Below, piece after piece: positions 17,081 to 24,270 of a DNA stretch of 36,590 nucleotides. This DNA comes from Thermoproteota archaeon (GTDB lineage: Archaea; Thermoproteota; Thermoprotei; Thermoproteales; Thermocladiaceae): NCBI GenBank assembly GCA_013154355.1, contig JAADCU010000090.1, positions 1 to 36,590 on the forward strand, in the 5' to 3' direction. The position numbers and the translations under genes are program-made. The notes beneath the pieces were generated by a model. The model saw nothing but the letters and a program-made list of their open reading frames with translations. It did no database searches and was not told the DNA's origin. Numbering within the stretch: position 1 is the stretch's first letter; every line of letters begins with the position of its first letter.

Positions 17081-18061
17081 TCATCTTCCTACTGCTGGAA
17101 TGTAACTTGGAGTCTGGGCACATATGCTCAATAATGCGTATACTAGGATAGAGTAACCTTCACCACTTTCCTGAGCATTAGAAGCCTCGTAACATTTTGA
17201 TGGTGGTCTTGGTCTAGGAGGAGGCCTAGGTGGTGGAGGTGGTCTTGGCCCTGTTCTAACTATGTATATTATCTTTACCTTTCCTCTCAAAATGTTTGAA
17301 ATTGGTCTTAACTTGACGAGAATCCTCACACGATCAGGTCGTAGTATCATTACTGCACTCATCATCCAGTACAGGTTAGGTATTTCTACATTACTGCGAC
17401 CTCCATTCAACTTTACTACTAAGCTTGTATTAACCTTCTTCACAAGTCTACAGATACCTCCTCTGCATTCTCCTTCTCTTCTTATCAAATTCTTTAGAAA
17501 GCCTCCAGACATGATGTATCTGATCAATGTTCTAAGTAGTCTATAGTCTACCTTAGATAGCTTTGTAATCTTATTAATGTCTAGTCTATATACTAGGTCT
17601 CTAATAACTCTACAGGTGCCTCCACTACATGTTTTCAATATAACTCTCTCGAAGCCTGTAAGTCTTATATATAGTATATCTTTACTAAAATATGTTCTAA
17701 GATTAAGATCCGTGAAGGATACTGTACGATATGTACATTCAGAGATTGTACAGATCTTCACATACTCTCTCAACCTTGTCACAGTTATAGTACACTCATA
17801 TGTGTTACCATGTTTTGAGCATTGATAAATTATATTTCTTCCACTTTCCCTTAAGATAAGATTGACATGGAGCTTACTATTATAATTCTCAACATCCTTA
17901 CTAAAGAGCACTATGACTCCACCATGAGCTCCAGGTCCGGGAGGAGGTGGCGGTGGAGGAGGAGGGGGTGGAGGTGCGTGTACTATGCATGTTATTGAGA
18001 GTAGTATCACAAGTACTGTTAGGAGAGTCAGTGCTAGTCTCTTAGGAACATGATTAGTCAT
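17081..18061 (-). CDS. Secreted proline-rich protein with cysteine-clasp repeats
   Basis: Not recognised by family. The 326-aa protein has a Sec signal peptide (basic VPKR then LALTLLTVLVILLSITCIVHA), followed by a run of 12 prolines (30-41). A roughly 230-aa domain follows, then a second Pro/Arg block (272-287) and a short hydrophobic C-terminal stretch (GYSILVYALLSICA). The central domain has four short Cys-pair units: C81/C90, C104/C109, C145/C150 and C199/C204; the last three are C-x4-C with hydrophobic flanks, like disulfide-clasped beta-hairpins. The domain is probably extracellular between flexible spacers. Its own TATA (TTTAAA near 18083-18088) sits about 25 bases before the ATG. It adjoins the secretion ATPase, suggesting surface-apparatus function (inference). 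Confidence 0.72.
   Translation of the reverse strand: MTNHVPKRLALTLLTVLVILLSITCIVHAPPPPPPPPPPPPGPGAHGGVIVLFSKDVENYNSKLHVNLILRESGRNIIYQCSKHGNTYECTITVTRLREYVKICTISECTYRTVSFTDLNLRTYFSKDILYIRLTGFERVILKTCSGGTCRVIRDLVYRLDINKITKLSKVDYRLLRTLIRYIMSGGFLKNLIRREGECRGGICRLVKKVNTSLVVKLNGGRSNVEIPNLYWMMSAVMILRPDRVRILVKLRPISNILRGKVKIIYIVRTGPRPPPPPRPPPRPRPPSKCYEASNAQESGEGYSILVYALLSICAQTPSYIPAVGR
17938..17976 (+). repeat. G-rich low-complexity tract (polyproline codons on the other strand)
   Basis: The plus strand carries at least eight GG or longer G-runs in about 40 bases, encoding the polyproline segment on the minus strand. It is a candidate for a G-quadruplex or R-loop on the template strand of the 17081-18061 gene, and a likely slippage site. 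Confidence 0.6.
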
Positions 18062-18097
18062 TGGAGTATGATTCTTCTAGTGTTTAAATGTTTTAGT

Positions 18098-19465
18098 CTA
18101 AGGTCCTGTACCTGCTTGTTGGGGTTGTAGTGCAATCTCAGGTCTTTTATAGAATTCTGATATAATATTTAACTGTTGCATATGAGATTTTCCTGCTAGT
18201 TCTCTCATTATCTGTTTTCTAATTTCTATATCTTCTCTACATATTTTTAAGCCTCTTGGAAGAACTATTTTTGAAACTATCCTACTCTTCCTACATAGTC
18301 TGATTCCGCTGCTCTCGTTTATGCTTGTGCGTACGCTCATCTTGACTATGGCTATCTCATCTATTATCTTTGAGCTTCCAATCATGTTTTCTATTCTTAT
18401 TTTTAGCTTATCGATGTTCTCTGCATGAAATGTGGTGACTCCACCGTGACCGCTTGTTACAGCATCTATCCATGCTGATACTTCATCTCTTGTTCTCACC
18501 TCGTTTACTATTACGTAGTCTGCGCCTATTCTTAGAGCATGTGCTATTAGGTCTCTCTTCGTTATAGATTGAACACCTAGACCATAGGCCTTTCTCTCGA
18601 ACAGTTTTACAACGTTATGTCCTGGTAAAGTCATCTCGTCGACATCTAGGATAAGTGCTTTAAATAATGTAGGATTACTACAGTATGTTACTGCATTTGC
18701 TAAACTTGTCTTGCCTCCACCCATAGGTCCTATTATGAGTATTGGAATCTTATTGTCGAACAGGTACCATAGTAGAGCTGCATTGTCAATAGATAACGTG
18801 TTTCTTTCAATCAGTTCTCCTAGAGTCCAGGGACGTCTTGGAAGAACTCTAACATGTATGTACGGGTCAGAGACTGGTCTAACAGAGACTGAGAAACGTA
18901 CTCTAAAATCTGGATCTGTTACAGAGATCATAGGCATATATGCTGTTATGGGATTTGAACTACGTTCAGAGATCTTATGTATTAGATAATTTACAAAATC
19001 TTCAAACCTATAAGTAACTTCTCTTTTTCTATTAAAAATTCCTGAAAATCTAAAGCATCTTGATAGCTCTATAGATACTTCACAGAGACCTAGATCTATA
19101 TGATATGCTCGAATAGATGATCTATCAATATAGATATCGCTAACCTTATCATAGAGTAGCAGAGGTGTGAGAGGACCATAATAGAGATACCATCTTTCCC
19201 ACAGCTTCTCAATTACGTCATAGCTTTCTCTCAGATACTCTCTACTGAATATTCTGAACATGTTATAAGATAGCATGTAGTTCTTAAGAGCTCCCTTCTC
19301 ATATATTACATATGGATCAGGAAGATCTATCTCTGGAACATCATCTATAATGTAGATAGTGAAAGATGAGCCTATAGATCTGACATCTATGTAAGACCTA
19401 ATGCAGAAGTCTATGATTGATAGTTCAACTCTCCTCCCAGCTGGTGTTGGTTTGCTAGCTAGCAC
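18098..19465 (-). CDS. Type II/IV secretion system ATPase (VirB11/TadA-like)
   Basis: A secretion superfamily ATPase (455 aa from the preferred GTG at 19465; 463 aa from TTG 19489). Counting from TTG: Walker A GPMGGGKTS (254-262), an LILDVDEM Asp-box-like segment (279-286), Walker B GADYVIVNEVRTRDE (322-336), and the His box SGHGGVTTFHAEN (346-358). The N-terminal half holds a VirB11/GspE-like domain with SDIYIDRSSIRAYH. These are the hallmarks of hexameric ATPases of type IV pili, Tad, archaella and type IV secretion. No TadC/ArlJ partner adjoins; divergent genes encode different membrane proteins. TATA at 19491-19500 is about 26 bases before the GTG start and overlaps the TTG region, so GTG is favoured. 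Confidence 0.88.
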   Translation of the reverse strand: MLASKPTPAGRRVELSIIDFCIRSYIDVRSIGSSFTIYIIDDVPEIDLPDPYVIYEKGALKNYMLSYNMFRIFSREYLRESYDVIEKLWERWYLYYGPLTPLLLYDKVSDIYIDRSSIRAYHIDLGLCEVSIELSRCFRFSGIFNRKREVTYRFEDFVNYLIHKISERSSNPITAYMPMISVTDPDFRVRFSVSVRPVSDPYIHVRVLPRRPWTLGELIERNTLSIDNAALLWYLFDNKIPILIIGPMGGGKTSLANAVTYCSNPTLFKALILDVDEMTLPGHNVVKLFERKAYGLGVQSITKRDLIAHALRIGADYVIVNEVRTRDEVSAWIDAVTSGHGGVTTFHAENIDKLKIRIENMIGSSKIIDEIAIVKMSVRTSINESSGIRLCRKSRIVSKIVLPRGLKICREDIEIRKQIMRELAGKSHMQQLNIISEFYKRPEIALQPQQAGTGP

Positions 19466-19490
19466 TGCTAAGTAAGAACATTTAACCAAC

Positions 19491-19500
19491 TTTTATAACG
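19491..19500. promoter_or_regulatory. Bidirectional TATA element between the ATPase and the membrane-protein operon
   Basis: TTTTATAACG (reverse CGTTATAAAA) is centred about 30 bases from the ATPase GTG at 19465 on the minus strand and about 28 bases from the ATG at 19524 on the plus strand, so it may be used in both directions. Confidence 0.45.
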
Positions 19501-19523
19501 TTACTATTGGGAGCCTTAGAGAC

Positions 19524-19580
19524 ATGAAAGTTAGAGATATAGCGAGCACATTCCTGAAGTGTCCAACACTCACCAACTAG
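19524..19580 (+). CDS. Possible 18-codon leader ORF
   Basis: An ATG placed where a leaderless transcript from the 19491-19500 TATA would begin opens MKVRDIASTFLKCPTLTN and then TAG. Its stop overlaps an AGGAGG motif (19579-19584), which would be a Shine-Dalgarno, but no ATG, GTG or TTG follows at the normal distance. The next canonical starts of the downstream gene are TTG 19627 and ATG 19633. It may be a translated leader peptide, or chance; the first residues also recall CBS-protein starts, so a gene remnant is possible. Confidence 0.25.
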   Translation: MKVRDIASTFLKCPTLTN

Positions 19581-19632
19581 GAGGAACATAGGATCAACTT
19601 ACATTAAGCTTCAAAGTGGCCACACGTTGAAC

Positions 19633-20346
19633 ATGAAGGTAAAAACTGTACATAAGACAGCTATAGTAGGCCCAGCTCCGAACAGATCATACAATCCAAG
19701 CATATTCATACCAGGCTCAATATGGTTAAGACTTCAGAACAGAGATATAACAGTTAAAAGTCTAGTAATACTAGGATGGAAAATACAGAGATCAAGAGAC
19801 GTCAAAATGCTAGAAAGCATCTTAAGCTACGATGATGAAGATGCTAGAAGAATAATAGACATACTATCAGTACTTAGCCCAGTAGAAGAGAAAAAGAAGA
19901 TACATCTGAAATTCATGTCAAGAGAGTCCGATATAGCAATAAGAATCTATGAACAACATCTAAGACTTCGTACAACAATAAGCAACTATCTGCTCTACCT
20001 CCTGATATTAGGAATGTACCTTAACTCGAGAGTAATACTAAACTATTCGACTTCTGATAAAGTTAGAACAGAAGCTGAGAAGGATGAGCAGGTTCTTAAG
20101 AAGATAATGGAGAGAATACTAGTGAAGAGATTAGAGAAAGAAAGCATCAATATATCAAAATCAGTAATCATCAAAAAACTTATGGAAATTAGTAAGAGAA
20201 ACTTCATAAGACATGCAAAAAGAATAGAAAGATTGCACAGTCCAGAAGACTTTGCAAGATACTTACTAGAACACATCATATTCAACATGAGACCTAGCAT
20301 AAACGCTAAGTACTATGTAAAGATATTTACAGGTGCAATAAAATGA
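19633..20346 (+). CDS. Hypothetical helical protein, first gene of the membrane operon
   Basis: Not recognised. It is 237 aa from ATG 19633; a TTG two codons upstream is an alternative. The protein is Lys/Arg/Ile-rich and mostly helical. An N-terminal segment with Pro and aromatic residues (NRSYNPSIFIPGSIWLRL) precedes helices. A hydrophobic stretch (SNYLLYLLILGMYLNSRVIL, about 112-132) could be a membrane or buried helix. The C-terminal half is highly charged (KKIMERILVKRLEKESINIS). Its stop overlaps the next ATG (ATGA), indicating translational coupling with the small membrane protein. It may be a cytoplasmic partner of the secretion ATPase and membrane channel (inference). Confidence 0.7.
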   Translation: MKVKTVHKTAIVGPAPNRSYNPSIFIPGSIWLRLQNRDITVKSLVILGWKIQRSRDVKMLESILSYDDEDARRIIDILSVLSPVEEKKKIHLKFMSRESDIAIRIYEQHLRLRTTISNYLLYLLILGMYLNSRVILNYSTSDKVRTEAEKDEQVLKKIMERILVKRLEKESINISKSVIIKKLMEISKRNFIRHAKRIERLHSPEDFARYLLEHIIFNMRPSINAKYYVKIFTGAIK

Positions 20347-20726
20347 GCACAAATACCACAATATCAGTAACAGGTATAAGCAAGAACATAGTTACACCAT
20401 TCTTAAAATATGCCTTCAACATAATATCGATAATAGGAGGAATCGCACTCTGGATGCTGATAATATATGGAGTAATCAAGGTAATAGAAAGTAAGATAGG
20501 ACCAACAGGCTGGTATAGAGCAACAGCATTAACAAATCTATTTGAAAACTTTAAGAGATTCATAATATCAATAGTATTATTCTACATAACAGTATACGTG
20601 ATAGCATACATAATGAGCTCAATGGGTGCTAACATATCCCCTACAGAGTTTGTAACAAGTCTTCTAGTAAACATGTTATTTAAACCATTCATAACACTAT
20701 ACAAATTAGTCATATCTACCAGATGA
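20343..20726 (+). CDS. Small membrane protein, pilin/CedA1-like candidate
   Basis: A 127-aa protein with a short polar N-terminus, two strong hydrophobic helices (FNIISIIGGIALWMLIIYGVI about 25-45 and FIISIVLFYITVYVIAYIM about 71-90) joined by a charged loop (KVIESKIGPTGWYRA), and an amphipathic third segment (SLLVNMLFKPFITLYKLVI). Two-helix small membrane proteins encoded just before a large polytopic protein recall the mating pilin/CedA1-like and VirB2/VirB3 components of DNA-transfer machines. No sequence signature proves this. It overlaps both flanking genes by four bases. No class III prepilin-type cleavage motif is visible. Confidence 0.68.
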   Translation: MSTNTTISVTGISKNIVTPFLKYAFNIISIIGGIALWMLIIYGVIKVIESKIGPTGWYRATALTNLFENFKRFIISIVLFYITVYVIAYIMSSMGANISPTEFVTSLLVNMLFKPFITLYKLVISTR

Positions 20727-23170
20727 ACACCATATACCTAATAATAACATTATCAGTATCAACATCAGTCATAATATATGTCCTACTAAGAAGAAAACAT
20801 AATATAAAGAACCTGATAGCATCTACAATAATATTAGTCATATTATACGCGATCATCATAGACCTAATACATAGACTAACATTAGCAGATATTCATAACT
20901 TAGAGCTTGTTAAAGAGCAGATTAAAGAACTTGGTATAATAGTAAACCTGATACTACTATCATACTCACTAATAATGACCATAATAAACATACTGCTCAG
21001 CCCAATAATAGCTGTATCTACAACATTGACTGGCTCCCTATATATGATATACTCATCGATCTTTAGTAAAGTGCTACCATCACTAGAACTCAGTCTCTCA
21101 ATTCTATCAAATATCTCTCAATTAGCAATACTAGTAATAACAAGTATCATAGATATCGTAATAATTAGCATAATATTATTAAAAATCTCTAAAATAATAA
21201 TACCAACAATACTAATAGATAGAGTAAGAATAATACCAATAATAATCATAATAACAACAATAATATTATCCCTGACATCAGTAATGTTGCTAAAATCAAT
21301 AAACATAAAAACTATAAAACATGACAAGACATTAGATCTCTTTAGAGAAAGTCTTAAAGAATATAACAATATTGTTAAAAGAAATTATACACTTATAACA
21401 ATAGAAACAGAATATCCATCACTAACAACGATCAAAGCAACATGCAAAAAAGATAATATAACATTAACAATCATAGGAATAGGAAACTTCAGGAACATAA
21501 TACCCTGTAAAACGTTCAAACTAAAAATATCCTCAATATTTTTCGATATAAAAACACAAGAATACGTATGTTCTAACAAATCTAAAGATAATATTACAAT
21601 AATGAACTGTAGAATAATATTTACAAAAAACTTTAATCTACTAAAAGCTTATGATAGATACTACATAGGATACTACATCACTAACTGTTCAAACATCATA
21701 GTTAACATATATTCAGATCGCATATACATCATTAATCCATCATCCTCTAACTGTCTAGTAGACCTTTATCTTCCTGACGATGTAATATCTGATCAACAAT
21801 TAGCAAACATATATAGGGTTAAGATAAGAAAGATTTTAGAATTCTTAAAAATCTATAACAATAAGACATTTTTAAATAATGTTAAATTGTTCTACAAATC
21901 TATTGGAGATATTTCATATTATTTTCATAACATCCTAGTGCTTAGAAATTATTCAAGCACTTCAATACTAATTGATAGTCACAGATTTGTAGAGTGGCCT
22001 ATGAACTTGTCATATGTATCCTACAATGAGTGGTTATATGAGAATTTTATTCGACTAACTAACTTTTCTAAGAACATAATCTCTTTGCCTATCTCTAACT
22101 TTTTACAGGATGAGTTTAATAAGATAATAATCTCGTTCATATACTCTATACTTCTCGATACATTAGGTCTCACTGTGTTATTCTGCGTAGTTGTAAACTT
22201 ATCAACTGTCGAGAATGTATTTTATAAGATCTTTATTAGAATATCTAAGTCTGTTCTATATGATTTTGTGTTAATACTCTATTTCAGGATCATTAGTAAT
22301 GTTATTGCAAGAAGAGTTATAAGGAGATTAACTTCAATTATAAGGAGTAAAAGATCTATAATATTTGTTGATCGTTATGATTCAAAAATTCATCATAAAG
22401 TTATTGATTTTTCTAGAAGGGTTAGAATGTTTTATGGAAGAAGATATAGAGGTTATGATATGGTATTTAGAAAATGTAGAGATATTGTTTATAGGAAAGT
22501 TGATTCAAGGATTGTAAGGGAGATTGATAGTTCTAGAGTACCTGTCTTTGATTTGAAGATTAGGAGGACTAGAAAGTTTAATATCGTGGTAGAGGATGTT
22601 ATACGTAGTCTATATGGAAAGTCTCTAAGTGAGTTGAAGTTAGGTTCTATTAAAGGTGATAGAAGATTACTGTTTTTAGTTTCTGCTGTTTATAAGAGTT
22701 ATGATAATATAATTGATCTGTCTCTAGATGTTAGGTTAGTTCCGCTGCATGTTCTAGTTCTTGCTCTTCGTAGGGATATATTATATGAAATATGTAAGTA
22801 CTCTGATGCTTTTTCTACTAGATTAAGAAGAATATTGAGCGAGGTTAATGATAGGAGATTTATGGAGGAGATGTTTAAAGTCTATGTTAAGGATCTATAT
22901 CATGTATCTCTTCTATTAAGTTCTAAGATTGATAGAAGAGTCAGTGCGAGGTTTCTAATCGATATTGGTAGGATTTATAATGATGTTGATAGGTTGTTTA
23001 TTTTTAGGTTTGTTAAGAATGTTGTAGATTATTATGTTGATAGGAGGTTCGTGTCTGAGCTTCTTAGGAGGTATGTTCATGTTCTTAGTGAGAGGTATCG
23101 TGATGATAGGTCTGTTATGAGACGTGAGCTTGCTAAGGTGAGGTATATTAGGAGACTTTTTAGGTTATGA
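20723..23170 (+). CDS. Large polytopic membrane protein, candidate secretion/DNA-transfer channel
   Basis: Not recognised. The 815-aa protein has an N-terminal membrane domain with helices at about 3-22, 31-50, 71-95, 131-156 and 168-191. A loop of about 275 residues (192-465) is rich in N-x-S/T sequons and Cys (C241, C262, C283, C296, C322, C344), so probably extracytoplasmic. A further helix lies at 466-493, probably another near 510-528. A roughly 285-aa C-terminal region is extremely rich in Arg, Asp and Tyr, probably cytoplasmic. The layout recalls VirB6/TrbL/CedA-type channel subunits, though much larger. Base composition switches sharply near 22,250 at the membrane/tail boundary. Overlap with the upstream ORF is ATGA. 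Confidence 0.75.
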   Translation: MNTIYLIITLSVSTSVIIYVLLRRKHNIKNLIASTIILVILYAIIIDLIHRLTLADIHNLELVKEQIKELGIIVNLILLSYSLIMTIINILLSPIIAVSTTLTGSLYMIYSSIFSKVLPSLELSLSILSNISQLAILVITSIIDIVIISIILLKISKIIIPTILIDRVRIIPIIIIITTIILSLTSVMLLKSINIKTIKHDKTLDLFRESLKEYNNIVKRNYTLITIETEYPSLTTIKATCKKDNITLTIIGIGNFRNIIPCKTFKLKISSIFFDIKTQEYVCSNKSKDNITIMNCRIIFTKNFNLLKAYDRYYIGYYITNCSNIIVNIYSDRIYIINPSSSNCLVDLYLPDDVISDQQLANIYRVKIRKILEFLKIYNNKTFLNNVKLFYKSIGDISYYFHNILVLRNYSSTSILIDSHRFVEWPMNLSYVSYNEWLYENFIRLTNFSKNIISLPISNFLQDEFNKIIISFIYSILLDTLGLTVLFCVVVNLSTVENVFYKIFIRISKSVLYDFVLILYFRIISNVIARRVIRRLTSIIRSKRSIIFVDRYDSKIHHKVIDFSRRVRMFYGRRYRGYDMVFRKCRDIVYRKVDSRIVREIDSSRVPVFDLKIRRTRKFNIVVEDVIRSLYGKSLSELKLGSIKGDRRLLFLVSAVYKSYDNIIDLSLDVRLVPLHVLVLALRRDILYEICKYSDAFSTRLRRILSEVNDRRFMEEMFKVYVKDLYHVSLLLSSKIDRRVSARFLIDIGRIYNDVDRLFIFRFVKNVVDYYVDRRFVSELLRRYVHVLSERYRDDRSVMRRELAKVRYIRRLFRL

Positions 23171-23226: not shown

Positions 23227-24270
23227 CTATATCTCTACTATTATCTCGAGCCTGTTTATTATCTCTTGATATCTCTGTCTTATTGTTACGTCTGATTTTC
23301 CTGTTGCTTGAGCTACCTCTTTCTGTTTTCTCTTAGCGTTTAATATGTTCACAGCTATGTATATTGCTGCTGCAGAGATAGCATACTTATCTTTTCCATT
23401 TGTAAGTCTTGCTCTTCTACATTCTTCAAGTATCTTCCATGCTAATTTTGCTGTTGATGGTCTCAGTTCTGGTGGTACGTCTAGCTTCTCTATAACTGTT
23501 GATATGAACCTCTTTAACTCTGTCTCATTTGTAGTATTCTGTAGTGTGAAACCTGATGCTGCTAGTATGGTCTTTACTTCTGCCAGTATTCTTGCAAGTC
23601 TTCTTCTATCTATGTTAAATTCTTCAAGTATCTCTCTTATTCTGAATCCCAGGCCTCTGTTCTTACATGCTACGTATAGTAATGCTGCTGCTAGTTCTCT
23701 AAGTCTGTACATTCTCTTCTTTTTCTCAACTATCTTACCTTCTTTTACTGCTTTAGCAATATGTCTATACATGTGTACTACATCGTCTAGAAGATCGTGA
23801 GGTAGGCCAAGTTTCTGTGTTATATTTCTAACAAATCTCTGAAGTGTTAATATGTTTCTCTCTGTACTTGTTACTTTAAGTCTCTGATGTATTATGCTTA
23901 TCCTCTCTAAGACATTTCTAACCTTTGACGATGTTGGAGCTCTAGATAGATCTATCTCGTCTTGTCCAAGACCTCTGTTTGGATATTTTATGTCAGCTTT
24001 GTATAATCTCTCTTTCTCTTCTACCTCTTCAGGAGAGTAGACTCTGTACTCTGGCCTACTTATATCAGGTAGTCTCTCCTGTATTACGCTTCCACAGTTT
24101 GGACATATTACTTGTCCAGTTCTATAGTCTATTACTACTTTAGGATGACCACAGTACGGGCAGGTATATATCTCATCTATGTTTACTACAGTCTTCTCTC
24201 GTCTTCTATCTCCATGAAGCCTCTTCCTAAGGTTCTCAAATTTTGTTAGATTTCTCTCAATCATGTTCAT
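23227..24270 (-). CDS. tfb: Transcription initiation factor B (TFB)
   Basis: A 347-aa TFIIB homologue. The zinc ribbon is CPYC-x15-CPNC (C37, C40, C56, C59). A B-finger/B-reader region (DISRPEYRVYSPEE to GRGLGQDEIDL-like RGLGQDE) follows. Two cyclin folds come next, with the first at about 130-235 (RLKVTSTERNILTLQRFVRNI, LAAALLYVACKNRG) and the second at about 240-345 (LPPELRPSTAKLAWKILEECRR, AAAIYIAVNIL, EVAQATGKSDVTIRQRYQEI helix-turn-helix for BRE contact). It recruits RNA polymerase to TBP-bound promoters. The ATG overlaps the stop of gar1 by four bases, forming a gar1-tfb operon, an arrangement common in crenarchaea. Confidence 0.96.
   Translation of the reverse strand: MNMIERNLTKFENLRKRLHGDRRREKTVVNIDEIYTCPYCGHPKVVIDYRTGQVICPNCGSVIQERLPDISRPEYRVYSPEEVEEKERLYKADIKYPNRGLGQDEIDLSRAPTSSKVRNVLERISIIHQRLKVTSTERNILTLQRFVRNITQKLGLPHDLLDDVVHMYRHIAKAVKEGKIVEKKKRMYRLRELAAALLYVACKNRGLGFRIREILEEFNIDRRRLARILAEVKTILAASGFTLQNTTNETELKRFISTVIEKLDVPPELRPSTAKLAWKILEECRRARLTNGKDKYAISAAAIYIAVNILNAKRKQKEVAQATGKSDVTIRQRYQEIINRLEIIVEI

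What the first reader, a model, noticed from the sequence alone, without database searches (positions are those of the whole stretch)
17081..23170. Candidate undescribed secretion, pilus or DNA-transfer apparatus
A VirB11/TadA-type ATPase (Walker A GPMGGGKTS, His box GGVTTFHAE) is divergent from three translationally coupled genes: a helical charged protein, a 127-aa two/three-helix membrane protein and an 815-aa polytopic protein with a 275-aa extracytoplasmic loop. On the other side is a secreted Pro-rich, cysteine-clasped protein. The layout is ATPase plus small membrane subunit plus channel-like subunit. No TadC/ArlJ-like partner, class III pilin motif, VirB4/HerA ATPase or relaxase is seen, so it is neither a standard archaellum/type IV pilus nor a full conjugation system. 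It may be a distant Ced/Ted-like DNA importer or a new system; the grouping is inference.
Basis: partly seen in the sequence, partly recalled or inferred. Interest (0 to 1): 0.82.

Follow-up and report, generated by a model that had tools for sequence, protein, structure and literature searches.

The report
Archaeal Ted DNA-exchange pilus locus
The gene cluster encodes the pilus subunit and a candidate membrane channel of the known archaeal "Ted" DNA-exchange system, in an unnamed genus of heat-loving archaea, next to a type IV pilus motor that may link two surface machines.

Summary
The cluster is real, but it is not an undescribed apparatus. The 127-aa membrane protein (20343-20726) belongs to the TedC conjugative-pilin family. 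Its only meaningful PDB sequence hit is 8DFT, the Pyrobaculum calidifontis pilus. A template-free model of it also matches 8DFT first. The overlapping 815-aa protein (20723-23170) is TedA by position, topology and N-terminal profile similarity to the tedC-downstream genes of Caldivirga and Thermocladium-like genomes. Its VirB6 fold could not be tested. The VirB4-like TedB and its MinD/ParA partner are on another contig of the same assembly.

The ATPase (18098-19489) is an archaellum/type IV pilus (FlaI/CpaF)-type motor, not a close VirB11. Its TadC-like partner and three pilin-like genes lie on a third contig. The two gene trees agree in topology. In Vulcanisaeta-like genomes all these genes form one cluster. 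That suggests a type IV pilus working beside Ted, as Ups works beside Ced in Sulfolobales; this link is inferred.

ATPase, helical protein, TedC and TedA stay together in the genus's genomes, apart from contig breaks. The proline-rich secreted protein does not belong. In all five genomes of the genus, the gene after TedB encodes a truncated TnpB-like RuvC nuclease, a lead for the missing relaxase.

The parts
18098..19489 (-). FlaI/TadA(CpaF)-type secretion ATPase, 463 aa, of a clade found only in this archaeal family among the genomes searched; predicted type IV pilus motor
   Evidence: Pfam T2SSE 2.3e-17; nearest solved structures FlaI 4ii7 4.9e-22, GspE 2oap, CpaF, VirB11 only about 1e-4; trees
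18704..18730 (-). Walker A, GPMGGGKTS (residues 254-262)
   Evidence: sequence
18422..18451 (-). His box, GHGGVTTFHA (residues 347-356)
   Evidence: sequence
19490..19626 (.). 137-bp divergent intergenic region between ATPase and the tedC-tedA operon
   Evidence: sequence
19627..20346 (+). 239-aa charged helical protein, found only in this genus, first gene of the operon, function unknown
   Evidence: conserved in all five genus genomes; no significant Pfam or PDB match
20343..20726 (+). TedC, VirB2/CedA1-like conjugative pilin, 127 aa
   Evidence: only meaningful PDB hit 8DFT: 0.003 single sequence, 7.5e-4 and 1.4e-4 with profiles; AF2 model best match 8DFT, prob 1.00, TM 0.58/0.65; family members in Caldivirga and Pyrobaculum
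20723..23170 (+). TedA, candidate VirB6/CedA-like channel, 815 aa
   Evidence: follows tedC as in other Thermoproteales; N-terminal domain matches Caldivirga/Thermocladium-like TedA, hhalign 96.7%, 3.3e-10, controls under 1.2%
21308..22132 (+). extracytoplasmic loop of TedA, residues 196-470, rich in N-glycosylation sequons and the least conserved part
   Evidence: 9 of 11 sequons here; 42% identity to G003 against 54-71% elsewhere in the protein

Best explanation
The cluster is the tedC-tedA locus of the Ted (Thermoproteales exchange of DNA) system in an unnamed genus of the Caldivirga/Vulcanisaeta family. Shown by computation: the 127-aa protein is a TedC-family pilin; the 815-aa protein is the positional counterpart and an N-terminal-domain homologue of the protein encoded after tedC in Caldivirga and Thermocladium-like genomes; VirB4-like TedB with a MinD/ParA partner is on another contig; the ATPase is a FlaI/CpaF-type motor whose gene tree agrees with that of a TadC-like protein encoded next to three pilin-like genes on a third contig. 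Inferred: TedC polymerises into a lipid-containing mating pilus, TedA forms the membrane channel and TedB drives DNA through it. Also inferred: the ATPase and TadC-like protein assemble a type IV pilus that brings cells together or otherwise assists exchange, as Ups does for Ced. In Vulcanisaeta-like genomes both machines lie in one cluster; here only the motor gene has stayed beside tedC-tedA. The confidence given is for the Ted identity; I put the functional coupling of the pilus motor to Ted at about 0.5-0.6.
For: TedC: PDB hits to 8DFT only; the same profile finds TedC in 25 of 61 relatives and exactly one place in this genome; it reaches Pyrobaculum, including G027, whose protein carries the 8DFT chain; AF2 fold match. 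TedA: directly downstream and overlapping, as in Caldivirga and Thermocladium-like genomes; hhalign 96.7% with reversed, decoy and TadC controls under 1.2%. TedB: G000:C18, full length at 31%, best NCBIfam hits CedB and CD1110 VirB4-like. Motor: FlaI best; TadC-like partner and pilin-like genes at G000:C117; agreeing trees and identity correlation of 0.93. Joint cluster in Vulcanisaeta-like genomes, L050/L051. In Caldivirga the motor lies beside a small pilin-like gene. TedC and motor co-occur in 18 of 25 family genomes, Fisher p = 0.0055, not corrected for phylogeny. Conserved order in the genus.
Against: The motor and Ted are separable: nearly complete genome G015 has TedC and TedB without the motor; G018 and G023 have the motor without TedC; Caldivirga does not link them; Pyrobaculum has Ted without this motor clade. 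The 815-aa protein gives no hhalign match to the shorter TedA of Vulcanisaeta-like or Pyrobaculum genomes, and its AF2 model is unusable (pLDDT 43), so the VirB6 fold is untested. The TadC-like protein has no Pfam or PDB match; its TadC identity rests on its place beside the ATPase, its topology and the matching tree. No DNA transfer by Ted has been shown in any paper that I read.
Confidence: 0.87

Rival explanations
1. The ATPase is the VirB11-like energiser of Ted itself, acting with TedB on the TedC pilus and the TedA channel, as VirB11 does in bacterial conjugation.
For: It stays next to tedC-tedA through the genus, with no TadC-like gene or pilin in the locus, while both flanks rearrange in G002; it sits in the Ted cluster of Vulcanisaeta-like genomes.
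Against: It is closer to FlaI and CpaF than to VirB11. Its tree agrees with that of the TadC-like protein and it adjoins a TadC-like gene in the Thermocladium- and Vulcanisaeta-like genomes. Ted exists without it.
Confidence: 0.2
2. The motor's neighbourhood with tedC-tedA is only inherited synteny; the two machines have no functional link.
For: The two are unlinked in Caldivirga, and each occurs without the other in some genomes. The neighbouring TFB and Gar1 genes, unlikely partners, are retained in the same block.
Against: A contiguous single-strand cluster of both gene sets in Vulcanisaeta-like genomes and partial co-occurrence.
Confidence: 0.3
3. A categorically new secretion or pilus system, as the title of the finding proposes.
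For: The 239-aa protein and most of the 815-aa protein match no described family.
Against: TedC-family pilin with 8DFT fold; TedA-family N-terminal domain; TedB and MinD/ParA in the same genome; the only TedC in this genome is here.
Confidence: 0.03

Closest known systems
Ted system of Thermoproteales (TedA, TedB, TedC; PMC9905601)
   Same: TedC-family pilin, TedA overlapping downstream, VirB4-like TedB with MinD/ParA; TedB in a distal locus, which the paper also reports for some species
   Different: TedA of about 804-841 aa with a large sequon-rich loop; an extra 239-aa protein; a FlaI-type ATPase next to tedC-tedA (the paper's main text has no mention of VirB11, TadA or a secretion ATPase); a TnpB-like gene after tedB
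Ced and Ups systems of Sulfolobales (PMC11868833, PMC9905601)
   Same: pairing of a VirB2/B4/B6-like DNA importer with type IV pilus genes (ATPase, TadC-like, pilins)
   Different: no sequence-level Ced orthology tested; no evidence of DNA-damage induction; the pilus genes here were not tested for relation to UpsE/UpsF
Type IV pili of archaeal subclade 4G (PMC4858521, section 14)
   Same: Vulcanisaeta/Caldivirga pilus loci with an ATPase, a FleN/MinD ATPase and two extra membrane proteins (arCOG10497, arCOG10500), also found separately in several Pyrobaculum; the latter two may be TedC and TedA, an equation I could not test
   Different: here the TadC-like gene and pilin-like genes are split from the ATPase; assignment to 4G was not tested
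Bacterial VirB/VirD4 type IV secretion
   Same: VirB2-, VirB4- and VirB6-like parts
   Different: no relaxase, VirB8, VirB9 or VirB10 noticed (not searched for systematically); the ATPase is not VirB11-like

Membership tests
Ted system | TedC: VirB2/CedA1-like pilin homologous to Pcal_0765 | tested here: met
   8DFT hits, family search, fold match, G027 protein carries the 8DFT chain
Ted system | TedA: polytopic protein directly downstream of tedC, homologous to other TedA | tested here: met
   position and topology; N-terminal homology to Caldivirga/Thermocladium-like TedA
Ted system | TedA has a VirB6/CedA-like fold | tested here: inconclusive
   AF2 pLDDT 43; no match to the Pyrobaculum TedA profile
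Ted system | TedB: VirB4/CedB-like ATPase in the genome | tested here: met
   G000:C18 full length; CedB is the best NCBIfam hit
Ted system | MinD/ParA ATPase associated | tested here: met
   291-aa CbiA/ParA protein upstream of TedB
Ted system | forms pili and exchanges DNA | not testable with these tools
   needs cryo-EM and genetics
Type IV pilus (motor of the window) | T2SSE-family ATPase of FlaI/TadA type | tested here: met
Type IV pilus (motor of the window) | TadC/FlaJ platform partner | tested here: inconclusive
   polytopic partner with an agreeing tree found but no Pfam or PDB match
Type IV pilus (motor of the window) | pilins with class III-like signal | tested here: inconclusive
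   three pilin-like genes next to the TadC-like gene, one with RGISGALSIVILL; cleavage not testable
VirB11 (bacterial T4SS) | closest to VirB11 among secretion ATPases | tested here: not met
   VirB11 NCBIfam 65 bits against FlaI 96; PDB VirB11 about 1e-4 against FlaI 4.9e-22

The most novel reading that the evidence does not exclude
In this genus Ted is an integrated hybrid: a conjugation-type DNA-exchange machine (TedA/B/C) that works with a type IV pilus motor pair (the window ATPase and the TadC-like protein), and that makes its DNA substrate with a TnpB-derived RuvC nuclease encoded directly after tedB, in place of a relaxase.
Probability: 0.12. Interest if true: 0.85.

Novelty: new member of a known kind. 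Interest (0 to 1): 0.5.

Why it matters
How Ted obtains single-stranded DNA and what else it consists of is stated as open in PMC9905601. This locus and its relatives give two testable additions: a type IV pilus motor tied to Ted, which would mean the Ups-plus-Ced pairing of Sulfolobales has a counterpart in Thermoproteales, and a truncated TnpB-like nuclease in the tedB operon. They also offer a reading of the unexplained "extra membrane proteins" of the 2016 pilus survey (PMC4858521).

Tried and rejected
A new secretion system: rejected after the TedC and TedA matches. VirB11 identity of the ATPase: rejected. The secreted Pro-rich protein (17081-18061) as a component: rejected; its only detectable homologue is in G001, the same position in G003 holds an unrelated 527-aa protein, and no homologue was found at G002 or G004. 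DNA-binding role for the 239-aa protein: I saw a ribbon-helix-helix-like pattern by eye, but Pfam and PDB gave nothing. A TFB3-like regulator: the neighbouring TFB has a zinc ribbon and TFIIB repeats, and I did not look for a link to Ted outside the genus. Structure of the 815-aa protein: AF2 pLDDT 43, so no fold search was run. TedA against shorter TedA of Vulcanisaeta-like and Pyrobaculum genomes: no profile match.
Full report
What is there. The window is one 36.6-kb contig (G000:C103) of a 1.39-Mb, 69% complete archaeal assembly. The ORFs of the finding are as described. An ATPase gene on the minus strand is separated by 137 bp from three genes on the plus strand that overlap by ATGA.

Where it comes from. 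The closest named records are unnamed Thermoproteota/Thermoproteales MAGs, and the next genus is Caldivirga. I call the other genera of this family Vulcanisaeta-like and Thermocladium-like by inference only: genome size; TedB next to TedC in the latter, as PMC9905601 reports for Thermocladium; and seven ATPase matches in two of the former, the number that PMC4858521 gives for Vulcanisaeta distributa. G027 is P. calidifontis or very near it, because its TedC matches the whole 112-residue 8DFT chain at 7.5e-64.

The 127-aa protein is TedC. A single-sequence search of the PDB gave one hit, 8DFT, at 0.003. Profiles gave 7.5e-4 and 1.4e-4; a designed repeat protein ranks higher, but only by adding eight matches of about 4 bits or less each. 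The paper identifies 8DFT as the P. calidifontis pilus built of Pcal_0765 (PMC9905601). A profile of four genus sequences and two Vulcanisaeta-like ones found TedC in 25 of 61 relatives, once in this genome, and in Pyrobaculum-family genomes at up to 2e-11. The window protein is 42-45% identical to Caldivirga TedC. A template-free AF2 model (pLDDT 72) has 8DFT as its first Foldseek match, probability 1.00 and TM 0.58/0.65; the E-value is 0.025 and no other match exceeds probability 0.23.

The 815-aa protein is TedA. It overlaps tedC as the large proteins do in Caldivirga (1090-1102 aa) and Thermocladium-like genomes (913-914 aa). Those two are mutually homologous (hhalign 99.4%). The N-terminal 205 residues of the genus proteins match the combined Caldivirga/Thermocladium-like profile at 96.7%, 3.3e-10; reversed profiles, TadC and eight polytopic decoys stay under 1.2%. 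The sequon distribution fits an outside loop and an inside tail. The loop is the least conserved part against G003. No match was obtained to the shorter Vulcanisaeta-like or Pyrobaculum TedA, and the AF2 model is unusable, so the VirB6 relation is carried over from the paper and not tested here.

The rest of Ted. TedB is full length on G000:C18, downstream of a MinD/ParA gene and two small genes. TedB is also found in the other four genomes of the genus, in some as pieces at contig ends.

The ATPase. FlaI and CpaF structures are far closer than VirB11. It belongs to a clade of Thermocladium-like, Caldivirga and genus sequences, sister to Vulcanisaeta-like copies. A TadC-like protein has the same tree topology at the level of genera and paralogues, and the pairwise identities of the two families correlate at 0.93, part of which is shared species history. 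In the Thermocladium- and Vulcanisaeta-like genomes the two genes adjoin. In this genus the TadC-like gene is next to pilin-like genes (three in G000 and G003, two visible in G001 and G004) at another locus, and in Caldivirga the ATPase lies beside a small pilin-like gene. So the missing partner is elsewhere in the genome.

Are the two machines linked? In Vulcanisaeta-like G007 and G013 one array on one strand holds TedB, MinD/ParA, the ATPase, TadC-like, three pilin-like proteins, TedC and TedA. In G020 a Ted cluster without the pilus genes exists. Co-occurrence in the family is 18 both, 1 Ted only, 2 motor only, 4 neither (p = 0.0055, uncorrected; G001 is counted by its TedA fragment and some genomes are incomplete). 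The genus keeps ATPase, 239-aa protein, tedC, tedA, TFB and Gar1 together while both flanks rearrange in G002; in G001 and G004 a contig break falls inside the block. Against this stand Caldivirga, G015 and Pyrobaculum. I put functional coupling at about 0.5-0.6; PMC9905601 reports that Ups and Ced act together in Sulfolobales.

A lead outside the window. In all five genomes of the genus the gene directly after tedB encodes a 299-386 aa protein; the two members scanned carry the TnpB zinc-ribbon domain (PF07282, 2.4e-7 and 6.1e-6). It retains RuvC-I and RuvC-III aspartates in all five; a RuvC-II glutamate is readable in each, although the alignment misplaces it in one. It lacks the N-terminal half of TnpB. 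Its PDB matches are TnpB-type structures, best 1.4e-4. It has one copy per genome, always next to tedB, dN/dS 0.21-0.27. Outside the genus the profile finds only partial, weak matches, and in the other Ted loci fetched only a 383-aa ORF near TedB in G015. A second conserved protein of 244-252 aa follows. A role in making transferable DNA is speculation.

Novelty. The system is known; this is a new-genus member with a large TedA. The motor-Ted link and the TnpB-like gene are the new points. PMC4858521 already noted pilus loci with MinD and two extra membrane proteins in Vulcanisaeta and Caldivirga.

Noticed in passing
G000:C18 (L122 1937-2869) and L124, L126, L127, L123: Truncated TnpB-like RuvC/zinc-ribbon protein directly downstream of TedB in all five genomes of the genus, single copy, under purifying selection, followed by a conserved 244-252 aa unknown protein.
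   Followed up: partly
window 23227-24270: A divergent TFB (zinc ribbon plus TFIIB repeats) convergent with tedA in the genus; it scores only 142.6 bits against an NCBIfam cut-off of 384, and other TFB paralogues exist in the genus.
   Followed up: partly
window 17081-18061: Secreted Pro-rich protein with 11 cysteines and a poly-proline run; homologue found only in G001, while the same position in G003 holds an unrelated 527-aa protein.
   Followed up: partly
L101, L103, L106: In Pyrobaculum/Thermoproteus-like genomes a giant ORF of 2900 or more codons follows TedA, or lies near TedB, in the Ted locus; Pfam on one of them gave nothing convincing.
   Followed up: no
G021 and G020: Several broken or split copies of TedB, TadC-like and ATPase genes, suggesting decaying or duplicated Ted clusters.
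   Followed up: no
L131 5115-6266 (G015): A TnpB-like ORF (383 aa) lies near TedB in G015, which has Ted but lacks the motor.
   Followed up: no
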